A stretch of 11,234 bases of DNA, from positions 1 to 11,234 of the forward strand of contig JBMFOH010000042.1 of the NCBI GenBank assembly GCA_049969715.1, given 5' to 3'. This document shows, piece after piece, positions 31-11,106 of the stretch; position 1 is the stretch's first letter, and the number at the start of each line of letters is the position of its first letter. The notes below the pieces were generated by a model, which saw nothing but the letters and a program-made list of their open reading frames with translations, had not been told where the DNA came from and made no database searches. Both the position numbers and the translations under genes were made by a program. The stretch comes from JBMFOH01 sp049969715 [NCBI: bacterium]. GTDB lineage: Bacteria > DUMJ01.

Positions 31-117
31 ATTTTTCATTTTTTAATCCCTTACGATCTGAAATGAGTAATTTCTGAAAGTCAATTATTACTTATTGAGC
101 TTTTTATTTTTAGGATA

Positions 118-146
118 TTGGTGTAAAATACTATTATTGATAAAAT
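118..146 (+). promoter_or_regulatory. Candidate sigma-70-type promoter of the URO-D-like gene
   Basis: TTGGTG (118-123) and TAAAAT (141-146) are separated by 17 bp, the preferred spacing. Transcription would start near 153, leaving a leader of about 20 nt that contains the ribosome binding site (162-168). The -35 box matches the consensus only moderately. The -10 box is the start of the second copy of a 12-bp direct repeat. Confidence 0.45.
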
Positions 147-152
147 ACTATT
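124..152 (+). repeat. 12-bp direct repeat TAAAATACTATT in the promoter region
   Basis: TAAAATACTATT occurs at 124-135 and again, identically, at 141-152. The copies are offset by 17 bp, a little over one and a half helical turns. The second copy overlaps the candidate -10 box and the predicted transcription start. It could be a tandem regulator site, a duplicated -10 element, or chance in AT-rich DNA. Confidence 0.5.
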
Positions 153-172
153 TTCCAGAGAGAGGAGGAACT

Positions 173-1336
173 ATGACACATAGAGAAAGATTGCTAAGAT
201 GTCTTAGAGGAGAGTCAGTAGATAGGATTCCGGACTTTGAGTTTGGTGCATGGGATCAAACTATAGAAAGGTGGCACAATGAGGGCTTACCCAAGGAATA
301 TACAGGAGAGGATGCTTCTATAGATTATTACTTTCATACCGATAATATTGAATATGGACCTATGCCTAGGGTTAGAGTCGGACTTCTTCCAGGATTTGAA
401 TACAAGGTCCTTGAAGAGAAAGAAACCCATATTATAGTTCAGGATGGTGATGGAGCTATAGCTGAGATGATGAAGCCTGAGTATGGAGCATCAATCCCTA
501 AATACCTTAGGTTTGCTATAGAAACGAGAAAGGATTGGGAGAAGATTAGAGACGAAAGATTAAATCCCGATGACCCTCGAAGAGTTCCAGAGAATATAGA
601 TGAGCTATGTAAGCTTACATTCGATGCTGATTATCCAATATTTATTCAATGTGGATCGCTCTATGGATGGATAAGGAATTGGATGGGTGTAGAAAGGCTC
701 TCGGTAACGCTATATGATGATCCAGAATGGATAGAAGAGATGATGGAACATCTTACTATCCTTATGTTAAAGGTTTATGAGAGGATTGCCGGAAGGTGTA
801 AGATAGATATGGGACTTTGGTGGGAAGATATGTGTTATAGGCAAGGTCCTTTGATCTCACCAGGTATGTTTAAGAAGCTTATGGTTCCAAGATATAAAAG
901 AGTAACTGATTTCCTTAAAAGAGAGACTGGTTGTGAATTTCACATGTTGGACTGTGACGGAAATATAAATCAGCTAGTAGGATTATGGCTTGAAGGGGGG
1001 ATAAATGTTATGTTCCCACTTGAAGCAGCTCATACAGATGCGTATAAAATATCTGAGGAATTTGGTAAAAATATAGCCCTAAGAGGCTACTTTGATAAAA
1101 GGGCACTTATAAGTGGAAAAGAGGCAATAGATAGAGAGTTTGAAAGGCTTATGCCTCTTATAAGAAGAGGAGGTTTTATTCCTCATACAGACCATAGAGT
1201 TCCTCCTGATGTATCTTGGGGAAATTATAGATATTACAGGATGAAAAAGTGTAAGATTATAGGTAAGGAATGTAAAGAAGGAGATCCGAGAGATTTAGAG
1301 AGTTTTAGAAATTATAGTGTAACATTTTTAGGATAG
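173..1336 (+). CDS. Uroporphyrinogen decarboxylase (URO-D) superfamily protein, non-heme type
   Basis: A 387-aa cytoplasmic TIM-barrel protein of the URO-D superfamily, which includes uroporphyrinogen decarboxylase and the corrinoid methyltransferases MtaA/CmuA. Visible motifs are the N-terminal MTHRERLLRCLRGE with R18-x-P20, EDMCYRQGPLISP (218-230), LDCDGN (259-264), the FPLEAA strand (281-286) and the C-terminal GGFIPHTDHRVPPDVSWGNY (333-352). The last motif is typical of the uncharacterised URO-D-like proteins often found near sugar-catabolism genes, not of true heme HemE. The HxC...C zinc motif of methyltransferases is not clearly present: the equivalent stretch is HMLDC. The start is the ATG at 173, just after GAGGAGG (162-168). 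An in-frame TTG at 95 would lengthen the protein by 26 residues, but it lies upstream of the likely promoter. Family membership is firm; the reaction is unknown. Confidence 0.9.
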   Translation: MTHRERLLRCLRGESVDRIPDFEFGAWDQTIERWHNEGLPKEYTGEDASIDYYFHTDNIEYGPMPRVRVGLLPGFEYKVLEEKETHIIVQDGDGAIAEMMKPEYGASIPKYLRFAIETRKDWEKIRDERLNPDDPRRVPENIDELCKLTFDADYPIFIQCGSLYGWIRNWMGVERLSVTLYDDPEWIEEMMEHLTILMLKVYERIAGRCKIDMGLWWEDMCYRQGPLISPGMFKKLMVPRYKRVTDFLKRETGCEFHMLDCDGNINQLVGLWLEGGINVMFPLEAAHTDAYKISEEFGKNIALRGYFDKRALISGKEAIDREFERLMPLIRRGGFIPHTDHRVPPDVSWGNYRYYRMKKCKIIGKECKEGDPRDLESFRNYSVTFLG

Positions 1337-2725: not shown

Positions 2726-4474
2726 TTATTCTAATGCCTCCAGAATAGCCGTTTTAAAAGCCTGATAGTCTTTATAATCTAGACTGTATAATTCTTCAGC
2801 TCTTTTGTTATAAGAGGGGCTGAAATCTAGAATATTCTTAGTTTTAAATATCTTTTCCCATAAGGCTTCTAATAGTGCTTGAGAATCTTTCTTGGTTCTT
2901 TTCAATATAGATATAAGTTCAAAGTCCTCTATTCCTCGTTTCAGATTCTTGTATCTTAAAGAGAGTATAGGACCACCATTCCATGATGGATATACAAAGT
3001 TTGTATCCCCAGCCTTCCAGTGAGGATATCTATACGAGATCCTTTCTCTCGGTTTTTCTGGCCATACTGTGTAATTCCATCTTAAGAATCCATCGAAACC
3101 AATGAATGCTGTAAGTATTCCAATGAGCCTACTCTCTACTAAGGGGGAAGAGATAAATGTATTAGGTTTAGGTGGCCAACAGCATACGTACCAAAGGAAT
3201 CTACCTTTTGTCTCTTCTTTCAATCTTTCTATTTCTTTCCATTTTTCACAGACACAAGGTAGTATCGGGACAAAGTCATCAATCTCATTTTTAAATCTAT
3301 CTATAAATTCTGAATGATTGATTGCTGCCTTAAATCTAAAACTAGGAGCGATCTCCTTGAGAAGGCTTAACCTCTTACTATACATCTCTAAATCCCCCGG
3401 TTCATCAGCAACTACTCTTACCTTCTCTATCAGTCTCTTTTCTATAAAGAATTGCTCTAGAGCTTTTATATAATCCCTTAATTCGTTAACACTCTTTATA
3501 TACTTATAAGACCCATCGGCTCTATCATAGTATCTAATCCTTATTGCATCTGGGTAATCTTCTATTATACCGTCATATCCATTTTCCGGATCTACCCAGA
3601 TGTTTATCAGTCCAAAAACCTCAATCTCTTTGTCAATCCCATAAGAGAAACAGATATCTATGTATCTTTCAATAATAGAAAAATCATAAATATATCTACC
3701 CTTCTCATCTTTTTCTATCCTTGCCATATTATATTCAAAAAGATCTGAAGGATAATTCTTTACTCTAAAACATCTCTGTCCTGACCAGGGTATTTCAGAT
3801 GCTATAATGGTAACTGCCTTTTGCCCTAACTCGGCTAGACTCTTTACGTACATTTCTATTATCCGAAAATGTTTATCACTCCAAAGATGTACTTCATGTT
3901 TCCTAGCTATATTTGATAGATGTTGCCAAAGGTCTAGATGAAATTCAAAGTCCTTTGGTTCAGGTATGACAACGTTTTTTACAGTAAGATTAACATTGAA
4001 AATTTTTATATTCCTTTCATCCTCAAACATTGATTGAGCATATAGTTTTACTTTTCCCCTATATATCCCTGGTTTTGTATCTTTAGGGATTGCAACCTCT
4101 ACCCATACAGGCTGGACATTTCCTTTAGGCACATATACTACTTCATCTTCGAGAAGGAGGTCTGATTTATAGATTCTATCATCATCCTCTACAAGACCAA
4201 TAGGATACATTTTTACTATTGCATCTGGAATATCATCTATTCTACAGCTTACTCTGATATTTAATAGTTGTCCATTTGGAGAGAATACTGCTCTCTTACC
4301 TACCGATAGCATAAGGTCTTCGTCTGATTTTATAAATAGCTGAAAGGCTATCCAATCCCTTCTGGCAGATACTAAAGATATCTCTGAATGTTCAAATATT
4401 TCTGGTGATTCTAACCCATCTACCCCATATTGATACTTATAACTTTCATCCATTAGACCGGATAGTATTTTCAT
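2726..4474 (-). CDS. DUF4091 / GH123-like glycoside hydrolase family protein
   Basis: A 582-aa protein resembling the DUF4091 / GH123 group (GH123 members are beta-N-acetylgalactosaminidases). The N-terminal third (to about residue 170) is beta-rich and ends in a strand-type linker. A TIM-barrel-like domain follows. VRVVADEP (352-359) places an Asp-Glu pair at 357-358, matching the adjacent Asp-Glu catalytic pair of GH123, which uses substrate-assisted catalysis through an N-acetyl group. Late-barrel motifs are FLWYVCCWPP (426-435) and FIGFDGFLRWNY (457-468), then YPSWNGGP and LKRGIEDFELI, all typical of DUF4091. No signal peptide is visible, so it should act in the cytoplasm on imported material. 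I chose the ATG at 4474 because GGAGG lies 8 nt upstream; an in-frame ATG at 4489 sits before that GGAGG and would add five residues. It starts 4 nt after the ATPase stop. True substrate is unknown. Confidence 0.85.
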   Translation of the reverse strand: MKILSGLMDESYKYQYGVDGLESPEIFEHSEISLVSARRDWIAFQLFIKSDEDLMLSVGKRAVFSPNGQLLNIRVSCRIDDIPDAIVKMYPIGLVEDDDRIYKSDLLLEDEVVYVPKGNVQPVWVEVAIPKDTKPGIYRGKVKLYAQSMFEDERNIKIFNVNLTVKNVVIPEPKDFEFHLDLWQHLSNIARKHEVHLWSDKHFRIIEMYVKSLAELGQKAVTIIASEIPWSGQRCFRVKNYPSDLFEYNMARIEKDEKGRYIYDFSIIERYIDICFSYGIDKEIEVFGLINIWVDPENGYDGIIEDYPDAIRIRYYDRADGSYKYIKSVNELRDYIKALEQFFIEKRLIEKVRVVADEPGDLEMYSKRLSLLKEIAPSFRFKAAINHSEFIDRFKNEIDDFVPILPCVCEKWKEIERLKEETKGRFLWYVCCWPPKPNTFISSPLVESRLIGILTAFIGFDGFLRWNYTVWPEKPRERISYRYPHWKAGDTNFVYPSWNGGPILSLRYKNLKRGIEDFELISILKRTKKDSQALLEALWEKIFKTKNILDFSPSYNKRAEELYSLDYKDYQAFKTAILEALE

Positions 4475-4478
4475 AATC

Positions 4479-5459
4479 TCATCCTCCATTCTTATAAAGC
4501 CAACATCTTACCCAATGATTACTGGCTACTTCTACCTCTGGTGGTGGGTCACTACATATATCCATCCTATTGTTACACCTAGGTGCAAACCTACATCCTT
4601 TAGGAGGATTGATTAAGTCAGGCGGTTCTCCTGGAGGAACCTCCTTCATTATCTTTCGGTTGTCTGGATCAGGCTCGGGGATACTAGAGAGGAGGGCCTT
4701 AGTATATGGATGGAATGGGTCTCTAATGAGATCTTTAGTTAATGCCCTTTCTACAATCTCTCCAGCATACATCGTAAAGATCCAATGGGTAAATGTTCTT
4801 ACTGTGGCTAGGTCGTGAGTTATATAGATGAGACTAGTGTTTAGTTTTTCTTGTAAGCTCTTGAGTAACTCTAAGATCTCTACTCTTACTGAAACATCAA
4901 GCATAGAGACAGGCTCATCAGCAACTACTAGTTTTGGTTTAGTGATAAGAGCCCTAGCTATTACTACTCTCTGCATCTGTCCACCACTGAGCATGTGAGG
5001 ATATTTTGATATGAAATCTTCTACTGGAGTCAATCTTACCTCTTCCAACATCTTAAATATCAATTCTCTCCTCTCTGATCTATCACCGATATCGTGGATG
5101 ATAAGGGGCTCTTCAAGTATTTTATATATACTAAAATGGGAAGGAAGCGCTCCAAAGGGGTCCTGCTGTACAAGCCCTGTTGCCTGCCTGTACCACTTGA
5201 TATTGTTAGAATCCACATCTGTTATATCCTTCCCTTCAAAGAATATCTTCCCTGATGTAGGCTTATATAATCTCAAAATAGTCTTTCCTAGAGTAGTTTT
5301 ACCACTACCACTTTCGCCTACTAAAGAGATAGATTCTCCTCTATTTAAGGTAAGATTTACGTTCTCTACTGCTCTAACATACACAGGATGGGACAGAAAC
5401 CCCTTTCTAATTTCAAACCATACCTTTAGATTTTCTACTCTTAGTAGTTCATCGCGCAT
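4479..5459 (-). CDS. Oligopeptide-type ABC importer ATPase, second subunit (OppF/DppF-like)
   Basis: A 326-aa cytoplasmic nucleotide-binding subunit that powers the importer with the neighbouring ATPase. Walker A is GESGSGKTT (48-56), the Q-loop is around Q98-Q99 in VQQDPFGAL, the signature is LSGGQ (157-161), Walker B is LVVADE (177-182) and the switch His is H215 in ITHD. All catalytic elements are intact. The C-terminal extension (about 250-320) is the oligopeptide/dipeptide transporter domain, with four cysteines at 289, 295, 302 and 319. In a thermophilic DppD homologue equivalent cysteines hold a [4Fe-4S] cluster. AAAGGAG precedes the ATG by 6 nt, and the gene overlaps the upstream ATPase by 11 bp. 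The family also imports oligosaccharides in thermophiles, so the name does not settle the substrate. Confidence 0.93.
   Translation of the reverse strand: MRDELLRVENLKVWFEIRKGFLSHPVYVRAVENVNLTLNRGESISLVGESGSGKTTLGKTILRLYKPTSGKIFFEGKDITDVDSNNIKWYRQATGLVQQDPFGALPSHFSIYKILEEPLIIHDIGDRSERRELIFKMLEEVRLTPVEDFISKYPHMLSGGQMQRVVIARALITKPKLVVADEPVSMLDVSVRVEILELLKSLQEKLNTSLIYITHDLATVRTFTHWIFTMYAGEIVERALTKDLIRDPFHPYTKALLSSIPEPDPDNRKIMKEVPPGEPPDLINPPKGCRFAPRCNNRMDICSDPPPEVEVASNHWVRCWLYKNGG
4483..4487 (-). promoter_or_regulatory. GGAGG ribosome binding site that decides the GH123-like start
   Basis: GGAGG (4487-4483) lies inside the last codons of the upstream ATPase gene (stop TGA at 4481-4479) and 8 nt before the ATG at 4474. 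The alternative ATG at 4489 overlaps the GGAGG and has no site of its own, so 4474 is preferred. The arrangement suggests translational coupling. Confidence 0.75.
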
Positions 5460-6426
5460 CCTTTTCTCCTTTAGCCAAATAGCATCTTACAAGATGGGTA
5501 TTGCTTACCTTAAATATAGGTGGTTCTTTTTCTTTGCAGATGTCCATTACAAAAGGACATCTTGGAGAGAACCTGCATCCTTGGGGAAGATTTATAAGAC
5601 TTGGTGGTGAGCCGGGAATAGATTTTAACTTTTTGTCCTCCTCTAATGTAGGAACACTTTCTAGAAGGAACTTAGTATATATATGAGATGGATTGTTATA
5701 GAATTCTTCCACAGGACTTATCTCTACAATTTCTCCTGCATACATAACAGCCATTGTATCAGCTAATTCACTGGTAAGTGCGATATCATGGGTTATAAAT
5801 ATATAGCTTAGTCCAAGTTCGTTTTTTAACGCCTTTAATAGATTTATTATATTCTCCTGAGTGATAATGTCCAAAGCAGATGTCGGTTCATCGAGAATAA
5901 TAATCTTTGGATTTGTGATGAGAGCCATTGCTATTACTACCCTCTGCTTCATTCCCCCACTTAGTTCAAAGGGATATCTTTCGGCAAAGGTTTCAGATAT
6001 TCCTACCAAGGAGAGGACTTCCCTTGCTCTCTTGAAGGCAGAATCTCTGTCCATACCATAATGGACCATTAATGGTTCTGCTACCTGGTATATTACCTTT
6101 AACACTGGATTTAGAGAGTTCATAGCGCTTTGAAATACCATAGAGACCTCTCGCCATAGGACCTCTTTTCTAAAAGACTCTTCAGAGAGGTTGAGTATAT
6201 TTTTGTTATTTATTATTATCTCTCCATTTACACTATTTATGTTTCTAGGGAATAGACGAATAAGTCCTCTTCCAAGAGAACTTTTACCACAGCCTGATTC
6301 TCCAACTATTGCTAATGTTTCTCCTTTTTTTATTTCAAAATTCACTCCATTTACTGCCCTTACCTCCCCCTTTCTTGTCCTATAAGAAATATTTAAATCC
6401 TTTACCTTTAGAATGACCTCGTCCAT
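5449..6426 (-). CDS. Oligopeptide-type ABC importer ATPase, first subunit (OppD/DppD-like)
   Basis: A 325-aa nucleotide-binding subunit, expected to form a heterodimer with the ATPase encoded next. Walker A is GESGCGKSS (42-50), with Cys at the fifth position. The Q-loop glutamine is Q99 in MVFQSAMNSLNP, the signature is LSGGMKQR (155-162), Walker B is IIILDE (175-180) and the switch His is H213. FQSAMNSLNP is typical of the OppD side. The C-terminal domain again carries four cysteines (284, 290, 297, 315) in the pattern GCRFSPRC...C...VRC. TAGGAG lies 5 nt before the ATG, and the upstream permease's TAG stop is part of that ribosome binding site, so the two genes are probably translationally coupled. 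Both ATP sites look functional. Confidence 0.93.
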   Translation of the reverse strand: MDEVILKVKDLNISYRTRKGEVRAVNGVNFEIKKGETLAIVGESGCGKSSLGRGLIRLFPRNINSVNGEIIINNKNILNLSEESFRKEVLWREVSMVFQSAMNSLNPVLKVIYQVAEPLMVHYGMDRDSAFKRAREVLSLVGISETFAERYPFELSGGMKQRVVIAMALITNPKIIILDEPTSALDIITQENIINLLKALKNELGLSYIFITHDIALTSELADTMAVMYAGEIVEISPVEEFYNNPSHIYTKFLLESVPTLEEDKKLKSIPGSPPSLINLPQGCRFSPRCPFVMDICKEKEPPIFKVSNTHLVRCYLAKGEKDAR

Positions 6427-6434
6427 GTTTTCTC

Positions 6435-7808
6435 CTATAACTCTTTTAGCTTAGGATTTACAATTCTATCTAATACAAAACCTAAGAGTGAGAATGATAT
6501 GGCAGTAAGGATGAGAAGGGCGGATGGTATTACTACCCAATATACATAACCCTTATATAAGGCTCCATTCTGGAAGGCATCTTCTAGAACTCTTCCCCAA
6601 GTAGGTTGAGTAGGGTCTAATACTCCAAACAAGGCAAGTATTGCTTCTAGAAATACATAAACAGGAACTGATGCTACCAGATTAGGAATGACAGGGGGAA
6701 GGATCTTAGGAATGATGTACAGGAATATTATTCTCCAGTTACTAGCCCCATAAGCCTGTGCTGCCTCTATATAGGGAAGATTTTTTACCTGAAGTACCAT
6801 GGCTCTGGTAGTCTTTATCCCAGATCCAAATATACTTAATACGATTACTACAAAAAGAAGGCTCCATATACTGAGCTTATAAAAGAGAGATATCATTATC
6901 ATAATAGGTAAGAATGGCAGAACCATATATATCTCTGTTAGTCTTTGAATTATTGCATCTATAGTTCCACCAAACCATCCACTGACAGAGGCAATACTTA
7001 GTTCTAGAAGGGTAATGCTTAATGAGGCACCAAGTCCAAATGACAGATCCAATGGGGTCCCCCAGAGAAGGGCTATCTGTATAGGCCTTCTCAAATGGTC
7101 TGTACCTGCTATTCCATATAATCTTCCATATACTACAAGCTCTCCGCTCAAGTGGTCACCCTTGTTAGCAAATTTTGTCTCTAATATTATTTTATAATCT
7201 CCTTTAAGCACATCTAATCTGTCTGAGTATTTCATAAAGAGGGCTCTAGGTACAGTTATTGAAAAATCTATAGGCTTTCCTATTCTAGATCTAATATCAT
7301 TATTTAGTCTATTCTCTAATGAAAAATCATTACTAAGATAGAGGGTATCATCTTCTGCCCTTATTGTGTGTTCTTCTAAAAATATTCTTTCTCCATCTGG
7401 TCTTTCCCAATACATCCTTACTATTGGTGGGTCTCCAGAGTATTTGGCTTTAAAAAATATGTTTATTTCAGTAGGAAAATCATCATAACTGAATGAGAAT
7501 CCTTTCTGTAAAGGATTTCCCTCGTTACTGTTAAAAGTTACATATATATTCCTTGGAAGATTTTTTCCTGAGAAGATGCCCCACCATATAGGTATTGCAT
7601 TTCTTGGCTTCTTTAAATGTGCTTCACTGCTATTCCACTCTTTTATGGCTTCACTGTAGGGAAAAAAGACTACCGTGTACACTGTGACTCCTAGGAAAAA
7701 AAGAAGAATTATCAGAGAAGCTACTCCAGCTCTATAACTTAAAACCTCTCTTAGAATCCCCTTAAGGCTATATTCGGAAATGATTTCATTATTATTTTCC
7801 CCTTCCAT
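6435..7808 (-). CDS. ABC importer permease, DppC-like, with a large extracytoplasmic insertion
   Basis: A 457-aa inner-membrane permease, far longer than the usual DppC/OppC (about 280-310 aa). A cytoplasmic N-terminus leads into the first helix (about 27-49). Residues about 50-234 form a hydrophilic, beta-rich region predicted to lie outside the membrane. Canonical DppC features then resume: GTD (235-237), where family members have GTDxxGRD, here GTDHLRRP; five further helices; and the EAA cytoplasmic loop YIEAAQAYGASNWRIIF (346-362), which docks on the ATPases. The insertion sits where canonical OppC has only a short loop between helix 1 and the GTD motif. The gene begins 4 nt after the DppB-like stop, with AAGGA overlapping that stop. 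The added domain probably contacts the unusual binding protein of this operon. Confidence 0.9.
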   Translation of the reverse strand: MEGENNNEIISEYSLKGILREVLSYRAGVASLIILLFFLGVTVYTVVFFPYSEAIKEWNSSEAHLKKPRNAIPIWWGIFSGKNLPRNIYVTFNSNEGNPLQKGFSFSYDDFPTEINIFFKAKYSGDPPIVRMYWERPDGERIFLEEHTIRAEDDTLYLSNDFSLENRLNNDIRSRIGKPIDFSITVPRALFMKYSDRLDVLKGDYKIILETKFANKGDHLSGELVVYGRLYGIAGTDHLRRPIQIALLWGTPLDLSFGLGASLSITLLELSIASVSGWFGGTIDAIIQRLTEIYMVLPFLPIMIMISLFYKLSIWSLLFVVIVLSIFGSGIKTTRAMVLQVKNLPYIEAAQAYGASNWRIIFLYIIPKILPPVIPNLVASVPVYVFLEAILALFGVLDPTQPTWGRVLEDAFQNGALYKGYVYWVVIPSALLILTAISFSLLGFVLDRIVNPKLKEL

Positions 7809-7812
7809 CGTT

Positions 7813-8868
7813 TTATCCTTGTATCCTCATTCTTGGATCTACTATTGCATACACTATATCTAGTATAAGTATTGTAATAGTTAAAAGATATGCATATATT
7901 ACTGTCACTCCTACTATTACGGGTGCATCAAAATAACTTATTGCCTGAGACATCGTTTGTCCTAATCCTGGCCAGTTGAAGATAAACTCGGTAACAATAG
8001 CCCCTGTCCAAGATGATATTACACTTAGGGCAAAACTAGTAATTATAGGAGGAAGTGAAGGACGTAAGATATATCGATACTCTATCTGCCGGGGAGAAAG
8101 TCCCTTTGCCTTTGCTACTTCTACATAATCTTCAGTAGAGTATATAAGAAAGAACGTCCTATTTTGGTATATTCCTAAGAAAAGAGATGCTATAATCCAC
8201 GATGTTAGTGGCAAGATCATATGTTTTAGGACACTTAGAAAGTAAGATATACCTCCAGGTGGAGGAGGATAGTCTACTAGCCCTCCTGAGGGAAGTATAT
8301 GAAACCAGGAGTAGAAGATCATTATGAGAAATATCCCGTAAAACCACCCAGGAATTACTGAACTTGGAGATAGAGATATGACAAGTTTATCCCAGAATGA
8401 TCCGTATCTTCTTGAGAGTCTCAAACCCAAGAATAGTGTCAATAAAAAATTTATTACTGTTGCAGTAGTAAAAAGCAGAACTGTTACAGGAAGTCTTTCC
8501 AAGATTATTGATTTCACTAATGTAGAACCACTATCACTTGTCATATACATAGCCCTTCCTAGGTTTAATGACATCGCATTTTTAAGATGATAGAGGCTTC
8601 GGATTGGAAATGGCATATCTAGGCCTCTCTTCTTCAATTCATGCCGAACTTTACTCTCTAGAAATCGTTTCTGTTCTTCACTGGATAGGTTTCTGAAGTT
8701 TGGATTATCCTTCATTGCCATTACGATATTTGTTCGAATTTCATTCTCGGCTATTTTATCTACATACCCACCTGCATTAGCGATTACTATGGTTAGATAT
8801 ACTGCAATAAGAACTGTTAGAAAGAGTGTAAATATCCTTTTTATTATAAACTTTAGTAGATTTTTTAT
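7813..8868 (-). CDS. ABC importer permease, DppB-like, probably starting at an ATA codon
   Basis: A 351-aa permease when read from the ATA at 8868. The first ATG (8721) gives only 302 aa and loses the first helix. The added 49 codons are open and read KNLLKFIIKRIFTLFLTVL followed by a hydrophobic stretch, which is the expected DppB N-terminus (helix at about 8-30). GGAGG lies 9 nt before the ATA, and no ATG, GTG, TTG or CTG occurs in frame between them and the 8721 ATG. Residues about 31-125 are a polar extracytoplasmic segment; helices 2-6 lie near 127-150, 173-189, 214-234, 271-293 and 317-339. The EAA loop is EDYVEVAKAKGLSPRQI (246-262), followed by YILRPSLPP, and DPR (344-346) is the family C-terminal motif. 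It pairs with the DppC-like permease. Family is firm; the start codon is inferred. Confidence 0.88.
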   Translation of the reverse strand: MKNLLKFIIKRIFTLFLTVLIAVYLTIVIANAGGYVDKIAENEIRTNIVMAMKDNPNFRNLSSEEQKRFLESKVRHELKKRGLDMPFPIRSLYHLKNAMSLNLGRAMYMTSDSGSTLVKSIILERLPVTVLLFTTATVINFLLTLFLGLRLSRRYGSFWDKLVISLSPSSVIPGWFYGIFLIMIFYSWFHILPSGGLVDYPPPPGGISYFLSVLKHMILPLTSWIIASLFLGIYQNRTFFLIYSTEDYVEVAKAKGLSPRQIEYRYILRPSLPPIITSFALSVISSWTGAIVTEFIFNWPGLGQTMSQAISYFDAPVIVGVTVIYAYLLTITILILDIVYAIVDPRMRIQG

Positions 8869-8877
8869 CTCAGTCGA

Positions 8878-8886
8878 CCTCCTTTT
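8878..8886 (-). promoter_or_regulatory. Ribosome binding site AAAAGGAGG for the DppB-like gene
   Basis: AAAAGGAGG (8886-8878) is a near-perfect match to the anti-Shine-Dalgarno sequence. It points at the ATA codon at 8868-8866 (9-nt spacing), while the first in-frame ATG is 156 nt away. This is the main evidence for the upstream, non-ATG start. Confidence 0.8.
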
Positions 8887-8892
8887 AAGATA

Positions 8893-8921
8893 GGGGGGGT
8901 AGCTATTTTAGCTGCCCCCCC
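8893..8921 (-). repeat. Strong G7/C7 hairpin between the binding-protein and permease genes
   Basis: Two 13-nt arms (8893-8905 and 8909-8921) pair around a 3-nt loop, with seven consecutive G-C pairs at the base and AGCTA/TAGCT next to the loop. One position mismatches: C against A on the operon transcript, G against U on the other strand. No T-run follows in the operon direction (TATCTTAAAAGG), so it is unlikely to be an efficient intrinsic terminator. By analogy with malE-malF-type intergenic hairpins, it probably protects the 3' end of the binding-protein mRNA and so raises its level above the permeases. On the opposite strand it is followed by TTAAAG, again a poor terminator. Confidence 0.75.
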
Positions 8922-8928
8922 TTAAAGA

Positions 8929-11040
8929 TTAATATTTTAAAAACTTGGCATTCCTTAATACTGCTGTATGAGCTACTATGTCTACCTTATCTAGATAGAA
9001 TGGACCATCACTTACCCAGAAGTGTCCATACTTTTCATACCACTTTCTTAGAGATGTGAATCTTTCTTTTGCCATAGTGGGCGTTACATACTTGCTAACG
9101 AAATTCTTAAATGGTATATATCCTTCTTTTTCGCTCCTATCAGTTATCTCTTTAAGGATAGATAGGCTTGGTCCTCCTATATAGTTGGTCCATTCTACAT
9201 TCTTCTCCTTAGCCTTATCTGCACTAAAAGCTAACTTTCCTTCTTCCTCTGCCTTTAGTCCTATAGAATAGACATGCCACGGTGTGTATCCAGAGAATAT
9301 AAGGTCTGTTGCAGTAAGCTCTGCATCAAGTTCTGAGTAATTTGTATAATATTCGATTACTAATGGATTTGTACTTCTCACTTTCCATGCTACAAACTGT
9401 TGTCTCCAGGTATTAAATGTGTCTACCCATGATTCGTCATAGAACTTACTATCCTGACTTGCCCTTTCAAAACCTATTATATAATCTACTATAAAGTCTG
9501 CTAGACTCATTACCGAACCGTCATGATAATGGAGCTTTCCAATGATATCTCCATAGTCAACTATAATCTTGGCATTAGCCTCTTTTACTCCTGCTTCTCC
9601 AGCGGTCTGCATAGTCTGCTTCTTTACATCCCATGCATACCAAGCATCACTAGGGACAGTAATTTTGTCTACCTTAGAAAACTTAAGCCATGTACTTTCG
9701 GGATTCTTAAACGTGGGGACATCTTTACGGACAGTCAATTCTATATCTTTGATATTTAGAAGTATGGGTAGTCCTGTAGTAGGATGCCATATACAGCTTC
9801 TTCCAAGAGTAGCATCTATCAATACATTATCGTAGGTCCAGTTAGAGCCTGCTACAGGATTCCAAGGGTCTACAATTACTTCTATATTTCCTGCCTTTAC
9901 ACTACCACCCCCTTTCCCAGAAATCTTCAGTGTGTAAGGCCATACTCTAGAGGCATATCCAGCTGCATAGTCTACAGCTATATCTATACCTTTTCTCCTA
10001 GCCCAAGAGGCATTCTGATCTACTAGGAATATCCTTACTGAGTCCTTCATTGCTAGGAATAGTGCCTTCTTCATAAGATTATTTCTCTCTGCCATACTTC
10101 TATATGTTCTCTGAGCGAGTTTGTTGCCGATGTCTCTAAATTCTTTTGTCGGTTTGTAAGCTCTCCATAGAGGAGAAAAAGACATAGATGAATCTGGCAG
10201 GTAGAAGAACTGGAAGTTGTCAGAAGAGTCTCTTGATACTACGGTAGTAATCCATCCACCAGTATAGATGTCCCATTTTCCTTCAGCAGGGTCTCCACTT
10301 GACCATAGAGGGGAGGCTTCCTTAGAAGTCTTATACATCCTTTCTACTTCAAAGCCTAGTTTCTCTAACTGGCCTGATATATAGTCTCCTATAGGTTTTC
10401 TCCTGTCCTCAGTCCTTATGAGAAATTTGATCGTTACTGTTTTCCCTTTATATGTCCATTTTCCTCCTTTTAGCTCTGCCCCCATTTTCTTCAGCTCATC
10501 AGAGATAACCTTCTTGCCTTTATTAAAATTATACTTATATGTTGATTCAATGCTTTGGATAGTGGATTTATATCTTTCATACTCTGGAAATCCTTTACTT
10601 AGAGGGACAAACTTTGGGGTAGCAAGCCCTCCCATTATCTCATCTACTATGTACTGTCTGTCTATAACTAGGTTCATTGCCTCTCGTATCTTTGGGTTAC
10701 TAAATGGATTGAACCTACCATCTTTATACTCTGGTCCTACTGGATTGAATGTGAGTTCATAGTATAAGCCAAACGACGTTCCATAGGTAAGTTGTGGATT
10801 CTCTTTGACGCTTCTAAAGAGCACCGGGTCATCTATCTCTTTATAGAAGATATCCATATCTCCTTTGGACATCATATCTATAGCTTTAGAAAGGTCCTTC
10901 TCTGGGAAGAACACTACCTCATCTACCCATCCGTTCTTGTTTATGTTTAATGTCTGGGCACTAGCAAGAGAGGTAGATATAAGAATAAAAACTAATGTTA
11001 CTAAAAGTGCTAACCTCTGCAAGCCTCCTTTTTTACCCAT
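8929..11040 (-). CDS. Secreted family-5 ABC solute-binding protein with circularly permuted motif order
   Basis: A 703-aa exported protein. Residues 1-28 are a signal peptide (basic MGKKGGLQR, a hydrophobic core, ASA before Q29), with no lipobox cysteine. It belongs to the SBP_bac_5 (oligopeptide-binding) family, but with its segments in an unusual order. GDMDIF (60-65) and REAMNLVIDR (119-128), normally in the second half, come first. QLEKLGFEVE (224-233) and WDIYTGGW (256-263) follow, then a Gly-rich SGKGGGS linker (374-380). Only after that come WNPVAGSN (393-400), HPTTGLP (419-425), LHYHDGS (503-509) and GPFYLD (679-684), which normally open the protein. The ATG at 11040 follows GGAGGTGA. 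The longer frame from a TTG at 11106 is rejected because that TTG is the -35 box. The ligand is unknown; a glycan or glycoside is possible from context. It is the first gene of the operon. Confidence 0.9.
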   Translation of the reverse strand: MGKKGGLQRLALLVTLVFILISTSLASAQTLNINKNGWVDEVVFFPEKDLSKAIDMMSKGDMDIFYKEIDDPVLFRSVKENPQLTYGTSFGLYYELTFNPVGPEYKDGRFNPFSNPKIREAMNLVIDRQYIVDEIMGGLATPKFVPLSKGFPEYERYKSTIQSIESTYKYNFNKGKKVISDELKKMGAELKGGKWTYKGKTVTIKFLIRTEDRRKPIGDYISGQLEKLGFEVERMYKTSKEASPLWSSGDPAEGKWDIYTGGWITTVVSRDSSDNFQFFYLPDSSMSFSPLWRAYKPTKEFRDIGNKLAQRTYRSMAERNNLMKKALFLAMKDSVRIFLVDQNASWARRKGIDIAVDYAAGYASRVWPYTLKISGKGGGSVKAGNIEVIVDPWNPVAGSNWTYDNVLIDATLGRSCIWHPTTGLPILLNIKDIELTVRKDVPTFKNPESTWLKFSKVDKITVPSDAWYAWDVKKQTMQTAGEAGVKEANAKIIVDYGDIIGKLHYHDGSVMSLADFIVDYIIGFERASQDSKFYDESWVDTFNTWRQQFVAWKVRSTNPLVIEYYTNYSELDAELTATDLIFSGYTPWHVYSIGLKAEEEGKLAFSADKAKEKNVEWTNYIGGPSLSILKEITDRSEKEGYIPFKNFVSKYVTPTMAKERFTSLRKWYEKYGHFWVSDGPFYLDKVDIVAHTAVLRNAKFLKY

Positions 11041-11075: not shown

Positions 11076-11087
11076 ATAGTATACTAT
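11076..11087. promoter_or_regulatory. 12-bp perfect palindrome ATAGTATACTAT over the -10 box (possible operator)
   Basis: ATAGTATACTAT is a perfect inverted repeat that contains the whole TATACT -10 element. A dimeric repressor bound here would block the promoter, which would suit a substrate-induced uptake operon. However, a TATACT box readily generates such symmetry in AT-rich DNA, and no regulator gene lies in the window. Confidence 0.35.
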
Positions 11088-11106
11088 TTATCCTTGCTTC
11101 TGTCAA
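11078..11106 (-). promoter_or_regulatory. Near-consensus sigma-70 promoter of the transport operon
   Basis: TTGACA (11106-11101) is a perfect -35 box and TATACT (11083-11078) is one base from TATAAT, with a 17-bp spacer. Transcription should start near 11071, giving a leader of about 31 nt that contains the GGAGGTGA site. No comparable promoter was found at the later gene junctions, so this one probably serves the whole operon. Confidence 0.85.

What the first reader, a model, noticed from the sequence alone, without database searches (positions are those of the whole stretch)
8929..11040. Binding protein looks like a circular permutation of the family-5 solute-binding fold
In ordinary SBP_bac_5 proteins the order is a dp-TG-P strand, then the HDG...A-D motif, then GPY, then a G-E/D-I-D-I segment, then R-A-x-x-x-A/V-I-D-R, then a return strand. 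Here the protein starts just before GDMDIF (60-65) and REAMNLVIDR (119-128), runs to the usual C-terminal half, passes a Gly-rich SGKGGGS linker (374-380), and only then shows WNPVAGSN, HPTTGLP (419-425), LHYHDGS (503-509) and finally GPFYLD (679-684). The old termini appear joined by the linker, and the new termini fall in lobe II between the GPY and G-D-I segments. I recall proteins of this general type in other thermophiles and Chloroflexota, but I do not know of a description of the permutation. It could alter how the protein docks on its permeases.
Basis: partly seen in the sequence, partly recalled or inferred. Interest (0 to 1): 0.75.

Follow-up and report, generated by a model that had tools for sequence, protein, structure and literature searches.

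The report
Circularly permuted peptide-type binding protein
This gene encodes a nutrient-capturing transport protein whose two halves have swapped places along the chain, a rearrangement that looks old, is common in the heat-loving archaea examined and seems to have happened more than once, and for which our searches found no published description.

Summary
Window 8929-11040 (minus strand, 703 aa) encodes a family-5 (SBP_bac_5, OppA/DppA-type) binding protein with its halves swapped. Residues 37-371 correspond to the C-terminal half of ordinary members, 374-703 to the N-terminal half. Thermococcus OppA (7fi3, ordinary order) matches both halves swapped by sequence and by predicted structure (Z 23.0 and 22.2).

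Corrections: the "Gly-rich linker" resembles the GG[TV] start of some ordinary members, and the new ends map to the lobe holding the old termini, not lobe II.

It is not isolated. The class occurs in 19 of 29 genomes of a Korarchaeota-type phylum and 6 of 7 Dictyoglomota; 243 of 398 genomes of L004's phylum match its profile. Dictyoglomota apparently acquired it from archaea. One archaeal subfamily holds two other arrangements, and the window's cut site recurs in at least two lineages.

Where an OppC lies nearby (19 of 22 loci) it is long and carries a homologous extra domain; three loci have no permease nearby. Function (binding protein of an OppBCDF importer) is inferred; the ligand is unknown. 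Ten literature searches, seven with a permutation term, showed only a permuted cluster-B glucose-binding protein.

The parts
8929..11040 (-). gene of the circularly permuted family-5 solute-binding protein, 703 aa, ATG at 11040 with GGAGGTG upstream
10957..11040 (-). signal-peptide-like hydrophobic N-terminus (about residues 1-28, no lipobox cysteine seen)
   Evidence: sequence; hydrophobicity score; cleavage site inferred
10909..10932 (-). new N-terminus: GWVDEVVF (residues 37-44), equivalent to the xPYLDKVxF segment that follows NPxYW in ordinary members
   Evidence: class-I rows start at a median position of 225 of the 526-position ordinary profile
9928..10932 (-). residues 37-371: equivalent of the C-terminal half of ordinary family-5 proteins
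   Evidence: Pfam, hhalign, structural alignment
9895..9927 (-). junction of the old termini, KISGKGGGSVK (residues 372-382), resembling the GG[TV] start of some ordinary members
8932..9921 (-). residues 374-703: equivalent of the N-terminal half of ordinary family-5 proteins
   Evidence: model of residues 372-703 aligns to 7fi3_A 34..321, Z 22.2; profile match to 7fi3 63-307
8989..9006 (-). GPFYLD (679-684), the GPY strand, now next to the new C-terminus
8892..8922 (-). stable RNA hairpin between the binding-protein stop and oppB
   Evidence: MFE of the 67-nt stretch -26.5 kcal/mol, z -3.27
7813..8868 (-). oppB-type permease (homologous reading extends upstream of the listed ATG at 8721; start codon unsure)
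6435..7808 (-). oppC-type permease, 457 aa
7125..7670 (-). extra domain of about 180 aa in OppC ahead of the transport domain; found in 19 of 19 class-I loci in which an OppC was found
5449..6426 (-). oppD-type ATPase
4479..5459 (-). oppF-type ATPase
11078..11106 (-). sigma-70-like promoter TTGACA-17-TATACT upstream of the binding-protein gene (consensus match only; the scan found no more such sites than shuffles do)

Best explanation
The protein is a natural circular permutant of a TkOppA-like family-5 (cluster C) solute-binding protein. The ancestral C- and N-termini are fused almost directly. The new termini lie in the loop that follows the GPY...NPxYW hairpin of domain I. Shown in silico: the swapped order, its conservation in a large class, and the operon with OppB, OppC, OppD and OppF in the window. 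Inferred: it folds to the usual two-lobed 'Venus fly-trap', binds an oligopeptide or oligosaccharide outside the membrane and hands it to OppBC. Also inferred: the permutation arose by tandem duplication and trimming, and the new C-terminus became the attachment point for surface modules in archaea (a membrane helix or a surface-layer-like tail), which the Dictyoglomota copies lack. The bacterial copies descend from an archaeal gene.
For: Profile of 5 permuted proteins against PDB sequences: 7fi3 E 5.3e-51 in two swapped blocks (profile 464-712 to chain 63-307; 116-289 to chain 399-583). hhalign of 61 permuted rows (52 used after its filter) against 8 ordinary ones: 109-436 to 232-520 (E 6e-20, probability 99.2) and 551-755 to 109-227 (E 1.4e-5, probability 80.2), swapped. 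AlphaFold2 full-length model residues 64..345 to 7fi3_A, Z 23.0, rmsd 2.5, 253 aligned, and residues 90..345 to 1xoc 263..492, Z 19.7; model of residues 372-703 to 7fi3_A 34..321, Z 22.2, rmsd 4.3, 267 aligned. In all 61 class-I rows the first match to the ordinary profile starts at position 213-291 (median 225), none at its start. The class is present in 19 of 29 (binding-protein part) and 6 of 7 genomes. Tree: the three Dictyoglomota-group rows lie inside archaeal class I; holding the 26 archaeal rows as one clade is rejected (p-AU 0.0006). A membrane-helix-like C-terminal end is present in 42 of 61 class-I rows and in 0 of the 6 Dictyoglomota-group rows, the window's included.
Against: The window protein itself gives one Pfam match, not two; in native order only 7 of 61 class-I rows gave two or more hits to the ordinary profile, 3 of them swapped by the script's rule. 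The full-length model is weak (mean pLDDT 62.5, pTM 0.50), and stretches 20-92, 340-424 and 676-703, which should form much of lobe I, are below 50, so the rejoined lobe was not seen in a confident model. The printed 7fi3 range for the N-terminal half is 83..723 (first and last aligned residue), so its placing on the C-terminal half rests on the other rows and on sequence. For the C-terminal half, structures other than 7fi3 score at most Z 6.6, a level that may mean only a common arrangement. In 3 of 22 class-I loci no permease lies within the stretch read (L096, L097, L101). There is no ligand, docking or expression evidence.
Confidence: 0.95

Rival explanations
1. The two halves come from different genes that were fused (a chimera of half binding proteins), and only resemble a permutation.
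For: The N-lobe half is far more divergent than the other half.
Against: Both halves have the same closest solved relative, 7fi3, including its enlarged N-lobe domain (Z 22.2 against 6.6 for the next structure). In class II both halves score alike against the ordinary profile and rotating them gives one colinear match (L107: 173.9 + 159.3 bits native, 353.3 rotated).
Confidence: 0.03
2. Sequencing or assembly artefact, or a joined pair of genes.
For: None beyond the oddity itself.
Against: Same order in 61 distinct proteins, including ones on contigs whose lengths equal the published D. turgidum and D. thermophilum chromosomes.
Confidence: 0.005
3. The permuted protein works only as a domain-swapped dimer or oligomer, each lobe I built from two chains, so that the junction of the old termini bridges molecules.
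For: A family-5 domain-swapped dimer is in the PDB (AliC 8qlh, title); the junction is short.
Against: No direct evidence; the short junction also fits closure within one chain, as the old termini are neighbours in lobe I (recalled from OppA).
Confidence: 0.05
4. The protein no longer serves transport (surface or sensor protein).
For: Archaeal members carry membrane helices, Ig-like or S-layer-like modules (weak Pfam hits), and 3 of 22 class-I loci have no permease in the stretch read.
Against: It is the first gene of an OppBCDF operon in the window; 19 of 22 class-I loci have OppB and OppC beside it; the OppC domain co-occurs genome by genome.
Confidence: 0.05

Closest known systems
TkOppA, oligopeptide permease A of Thermococcus kodakarensis (PDB 7fi3)
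   Same: closest solved relative of both halves; same enlarged N-lobe domain; branches with or inside the permuted class in the tree
   Different: ordinary order of the halves; solved with a bound pentapeptide (entry title), whereas the ligand here is unknown
SBP_bac_5 / cluster C binding proteins (OppA, DppA, NikA, AppA, TM1223)
   Same: family profile, half-structures, OppBCDF-type operon
   Different: what matches Pfam positions 147-352 comes first in the chain, and the equivalent of the profile's start comes after it
Tp0684 / MglB-2 of Treponema pallidum, 'Type Ic / Cluster Bc' circularly permuted glucose-binding protein (PMC4990184; abstract and passages seen)
   Same: a natural circular permutation of an ABC-importer binding protein; its authors also raised anchoring as a possible reason
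   Different: cluster B sugar-binding fold, another cut site, another lineage

Membership tests
SBP_bac_5 (PF00496) | score above the curated gathering cut-off | tested here: met
   78.5 bits against 32.4
SBP_bac_5 (PF00496) | colinear order of the whole profile | tested here: not met
   only positions 147-352 matched, at the protein's start; swapped blocks on 7fi3 and on an ordinary profile
SBP_bac_5 (PF00496) | both halves of the cluster C fold | tested here: met
   VIA-align Z 23.0 and 22.2 to 7fi3 for the two halves; assembly of the rejoined lobe not confidently modelled
SBP_bac_5 (PF00496) | operon with OppB, OppC, OppD, OppF | tested here: met
SBP_bac_5 (PF00496) | secreted (signal peptide or anchor) | tested here: inconclusive
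   hydrophobic N-terminus; no signal-peptide predictor on hand
SBP_bac_5 (PF00496) | binds an oligopeptide, nickel complex or oligosaccharide | not testable with these tools
   needs purified protein
Type Ic / Cluster Bc permuted sugar-binding proteins (Tp0684) | cluster B fold | tested here: inconclusive
   the sequence family is SBP_bac_5 and the structural rows shown are family-5-type proteins; no cluster B model was compared directly
Type Ic / Cluster Bc permuted sugar-binding proteins (Tp0684) | circularly permuted topology | tested here: met

The most novel reading that the evidence does not exclude
Family-5 binding proteins of thermophilic archaea undergo circular permutation again and again. 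The loop after NPxYW in domain I is a permutation hot spot, used independently by at least two lineages (the class of this window, and a subfamily that sits inside ordinary-order proteins). In that subfamily the gene was probably permuted twice in series (ordinary order, then a cut after the DPDN segment, then the NPxYW cut). The ordinary-order Thermococcus OppA may even be a reversal from a permuted ancestor. The driving force would be re-siting of the terminus that carries the membrane or surface anchor.
Probability: 0.65. Interest if true: 0.85.

Novelty: new variant of a known kind. Interest (0 to 1): 0.74.

Why it matters
Natural circular permutations that become the standard form of a large class are uncommon (my general knowledge), and for ABC-importer binding proteins the only published natural case that our searches showed is a cluster B sugar-binding group. 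Here a whole class in Thermoproteota and Korarchaeota-type genomes is permuted, and related classes use the same or another cut. Pfam reports these proteins mostly as partial SBP_bac_5 matches, so the rearrangement is easy to miss. They are natural topology variants with which to test whether a binding protein's termini matter for folding, anchoring and docking on the importer. The case also gives a likely archaea-to-bacteria transfer and an OppC domain that accompanies the permuted protein and fits no Pfam family well.

Tried and rejected
NCBIfam gave only weak partial hits, mostly to nickel and peptide binding proteins. In the plasmid collection 35 records matched weakly over at most 44% of the protein (20 rows shown, mostly GsiB-type) and none matched the OppC segment; the one IMG/VR scan, with two patterns, found no relative. 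One clade of classes I and II without TkOppA was rejected (p-AU 2e-48); class I without TkOppA as one clade was not rejected (p 0.062 and 0.162), so one event plus a reversal and two events are both open. Overlap of the new ends (a trace of tandem duplication) was looked for: class II profile matches overlap by up to 17 positions in some rows, but this could be alignment overrun, so no claim is made. I considered that the OppC insertion is tied to permutation as such and rejected it: one class II system (L138) has a 309-aa OppC and the class III/IV OppCs give no match to the domain. Other phyla, Chloroflexota included, could not be searched. The very long frames of L036 and L104 were taken as start-codon overcalls and not followed.

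Full report
What was checked. The open frame at window 8929-11040 on the minus strand encodes 703 aa from an ATG with a good ribosome-binding site.

Order of the halves. Pfam PF00496 matches residues 38-269 with profile positions 147-352 of 368, so the start of the profile is missing at the protein's start. Single-sequence comparison with the PDB finds 7fi3, the ordinary-order OppA of Thermococcus kodakarensis, in two blocks in swapped order. A profile from five permuted proteins (window, L001-L004) raises this to E 5.3e-51 with blocks 464-712 to chain 63-307 and 116-289 to chain 399-583. Profile against profile (61 permuted rows, 8 ordinary rows) gives two alignments, again swapped, with E 6e-20 and 1.4e-5. 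In native order only 3 of the 61 show the swapped second hit to the ordinary profile by plain HMMER, because the N-lobe half of this class is divergent.

Structure. The full-length AlphaFold2 model is weak (mean pLDDT 62.5, five sequences), but its confident N-terminal half aligns with the C-terminal half of family-5 structures: B. subtilis AppA 1xoc residues 263-492 Z 19.7, and 7fi3 Z 23.0 (printed range 83..723, first and last residue only). Residues 372-703 modelled alone (pLDDT 77.0) align over 267 residues with 7fi3 34..321, Z 22.2. In 48 of the 50 listed rows the matched range ends by residue 321, so it is the N-terminal half; but rows other than 7fi3 score Z 6.6 or less. The two halves thus fit the two halves of one structure in swapped order. 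That the rejoined lobe closes in one chain is inferred, not modelled.

Details corrected. The 'Gly-rich linker' SGKGGGS resembles the start of ordinary members: KKGGTLV, RYGGVLR and KTGGTLT in L005, L009 and L013, all from G001; the other 5 of the 8 ordinary rows used, from archaeal genomes, lack it. GG is kept at residues 378-379 in 44 of 61 permuted rows, and class II shows FGGTL-like motifs there. The new C-terminus maps near OppA residue 208 (1b52, Z 5.8); by the OppA domain boundaries I recall (domain I: about 1-44, 169-270, 487-517) this is lobe I, not lobe II.

How common. With the five-row profile, 22 of 29 genomes of the phylum of L003 match; in 19 the match covers the binding protein (in G014 split over two contigs), and in 3 (G006, G027, G029) only the C-terminal extra part. 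In the phylum of L001, 6 of 7 match, one of them split over two contigs. In the phylum of L004, 243 of 398 match at E 1e-15; not every match is printed or was checked for full length. From fetched loci, 78 frames, 61 of them distinct and the window's among them, run colinearly with the permuted profile from before position 70 to beyond 690; that span (and over 150 bits) was the selection rule, and contig-end fragments and C-terminal-part-only matches were left out. Two contigs of the L001 phylum have the exact lengths published for D. turgidum and D. thermophilum (1,855,560 and 1,959,987 bp; PMC5167688, passages seen), so I take this phylum as Dictyoglomota. That the L003 phylum is Korarchaeota is recalled from the organism name. 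The window's protein groups with the Dictyoglomota rows; no genome is held for the window, so its species is not known.

Origin. Trees used rows rotated to ordinary order and part of the rows: 29 of 61 class-I rows, 20. The Dictyoglomota-group rows lie inside archaeal class I (99-100% SH-aLRT), and forcing the 26 archaeal rows into one clade is rejected (p-AU 0.0006). Transfer from archaea to Dictyoglomota is the simple reading, given that only three phyla were sampled. TkOppA joins class I; class I as a clade without it is not rejected (p 0.062 and 0.162).

Other permuted classes. Class II (L016 type, 603 aa and longer) matched colinearly over most of its length in 11 of 151 genomes. Nine rows were used (L114, a near copy, and L117 were left out); all 9 show two hits to an ordinary profile in swapped order, with profile ranges starting at 211-243 and ending at 492-522 first, and 33-42 to 221-233 second (read; the script's stricter rule counted 7). 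Rotation turns L107 from 173.9 plus 159.3 bits into a single 353.3-bit match. The 16 ordinary controls that built the profile give single colinear hits, as do two ordinary proteins outside it (L103 first system, L153); a third (L156) gives two pieces in ordinary order. A further subfamily holds two topologies: L127-L130 and L011 begin with the ordinary C-terminal tail (class III), whereas L131-L136 begin after NPYYW (class IV); matches to L127 run at 37-48% identity. Of 121 genomes searched with the class III protein, 12 matched: 4 class III, 6 class IV, and 2 at 30% identity of which one (G058, L153) was checked and has ordinary order. The subfamily is one clade (100%) inside ordinary-order proteins (95-97%), with two class III rows branching first; the order among the rest is unresolved (quick tree). 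So the window's cut site was, by parsimony, used at least twice independently, and one lineage was probably permuted twice.

Context. Of 22 class-I loci with room on both sides, 19 have OppB and a long OppC (457-489 aa), and all 19 OppCs match the extra domain; 3 (L096, L097, L101) have no permease in the stretch read. L002, L003, L092 and L148 are cut by a contig or stretch end and were not counted. The domain is homologous across class I, fits no Pfam family convincingly (4 families, each matched by 1 of 11 members, best E 0.0064) and co-occurs by genome: 19 of 19 class-I genomes in the L003 phylum have it and 1 of the other 10 does (G013); in Dictyoglomota 6 of 6 and 0 of 1. Operon co-inheritance explains this as well as contact would. 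Of seven class II loci, four have a long OppC (478-518 aa), one a 309-aa OppC, one a fused OppB-OppC frame and one (L142) none in the stretch; none matches the class-I domain, nor do the OppCs of classes III and IV.

Why permute. In class I, 42 of 61 rows end in a membrane-helix-like stretch, 13 end in a tail that looks surface-layer-like or calcium-loop-like (two weak PF05124 hits, both below cut-off), and the 6 Dictyoglomota-group rows end at the binding-protein fold itself. The ten class III/IV proteins measured have an N-terminal helix-like stretch and no C-terminal one. Re-siting the anchor is therefore my preferred reason (inference); the authors of the permuted Tp0684 paper raised the same idea for cluster B (PMC4990184, passages).

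Function. Binding protein of an OppBCDF importer is inferred from family and operon. Peptide is suggested by TkOppA; a glycan is suggested by the GH123-type gene overlapping oppF in the window, but no relative of that gene was found in the 45 other loci compared.

Literature. Ten searches of the held library were run. Seven carried a permutation term (9, 34, 36, 79, 80, 82, 91; some returned nothing); the others sought TkOppA, SSO1273 and Dictyoglomus binding proteins. Among the titles and abstracts listed I saw no permuted family-5 binding protein; I opened two papers. Most subscription-journal papers, and preprints, are not held. The D. turgidum genome paper lists seven annotated oligopeptide/dipeptide systems (passage); the passages seen say nothing of permutation.

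Noticed in passing
window 8721-8910 (minus strand): oppB has no ATG, GTG or TTG between the in-frame stop at 8910 and the ATG at 8721, although homology runs further upstream; an ATA at 8868 lies 9 bases after AGGAGG. Either an ATA start or a sequence change.
   Followed up: partly
window 8892-8922: Strong G/C-rich hairpin between the binding-protein gene and oppB (67-nt stretch -26.5 kcal/mol, z -3.27); could set the binding protein's higher expression.
   Followed up: partly
window 7125-7670: About 180-aa domain in OppC ahead of the transport domain, homologous in class-I systems of archaea and Dictyoglomota, without a convincing Pfam family.
   Followed up: partly
window 2726-4489: GH123-type glycoside hydrolase gene overlaps oppF by 11 bases, followed by an MFS gene; a URO-D family gene lies beyond on the other strand. 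None of the three has a relative in the 45 other loci compared.
   Followed up: partly
L131-L136 against L127-L130 and L011: One archaeal binding-protein subfamily with two different circular permutations; L127-L136 have an N-terminal membrane-helix-like stretch (L011 not measured).
   Followed up: yes
L049:7462-9723: 754-aa frame in a class II system that joins OppB-like and OppC-like permeases in one chain.
   Followed up: no
L003, L022-L027, L029-L033 C-termini: Permuted binding proteins end in a domain with DxNxNGxVD calcium-loop-like motifs; two of those scanned have weak S_layer_C (PF05124) likeness below cut-off. The same region of the profile matches the ends of other proteins (L039-L041, L044, L045).
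   Followed up: no
L004, L016, L012, L008: One archaeal genome (G004) holds class I, class II and class III permuted binding proteins (two different cut sites) beside an ordinary one (L008).
   Followed up: partly
L096, L097, L101: Class-I permuted binding proteins without any OppB or OppC frame in the 20 kb stretch read.
   Followed up: no
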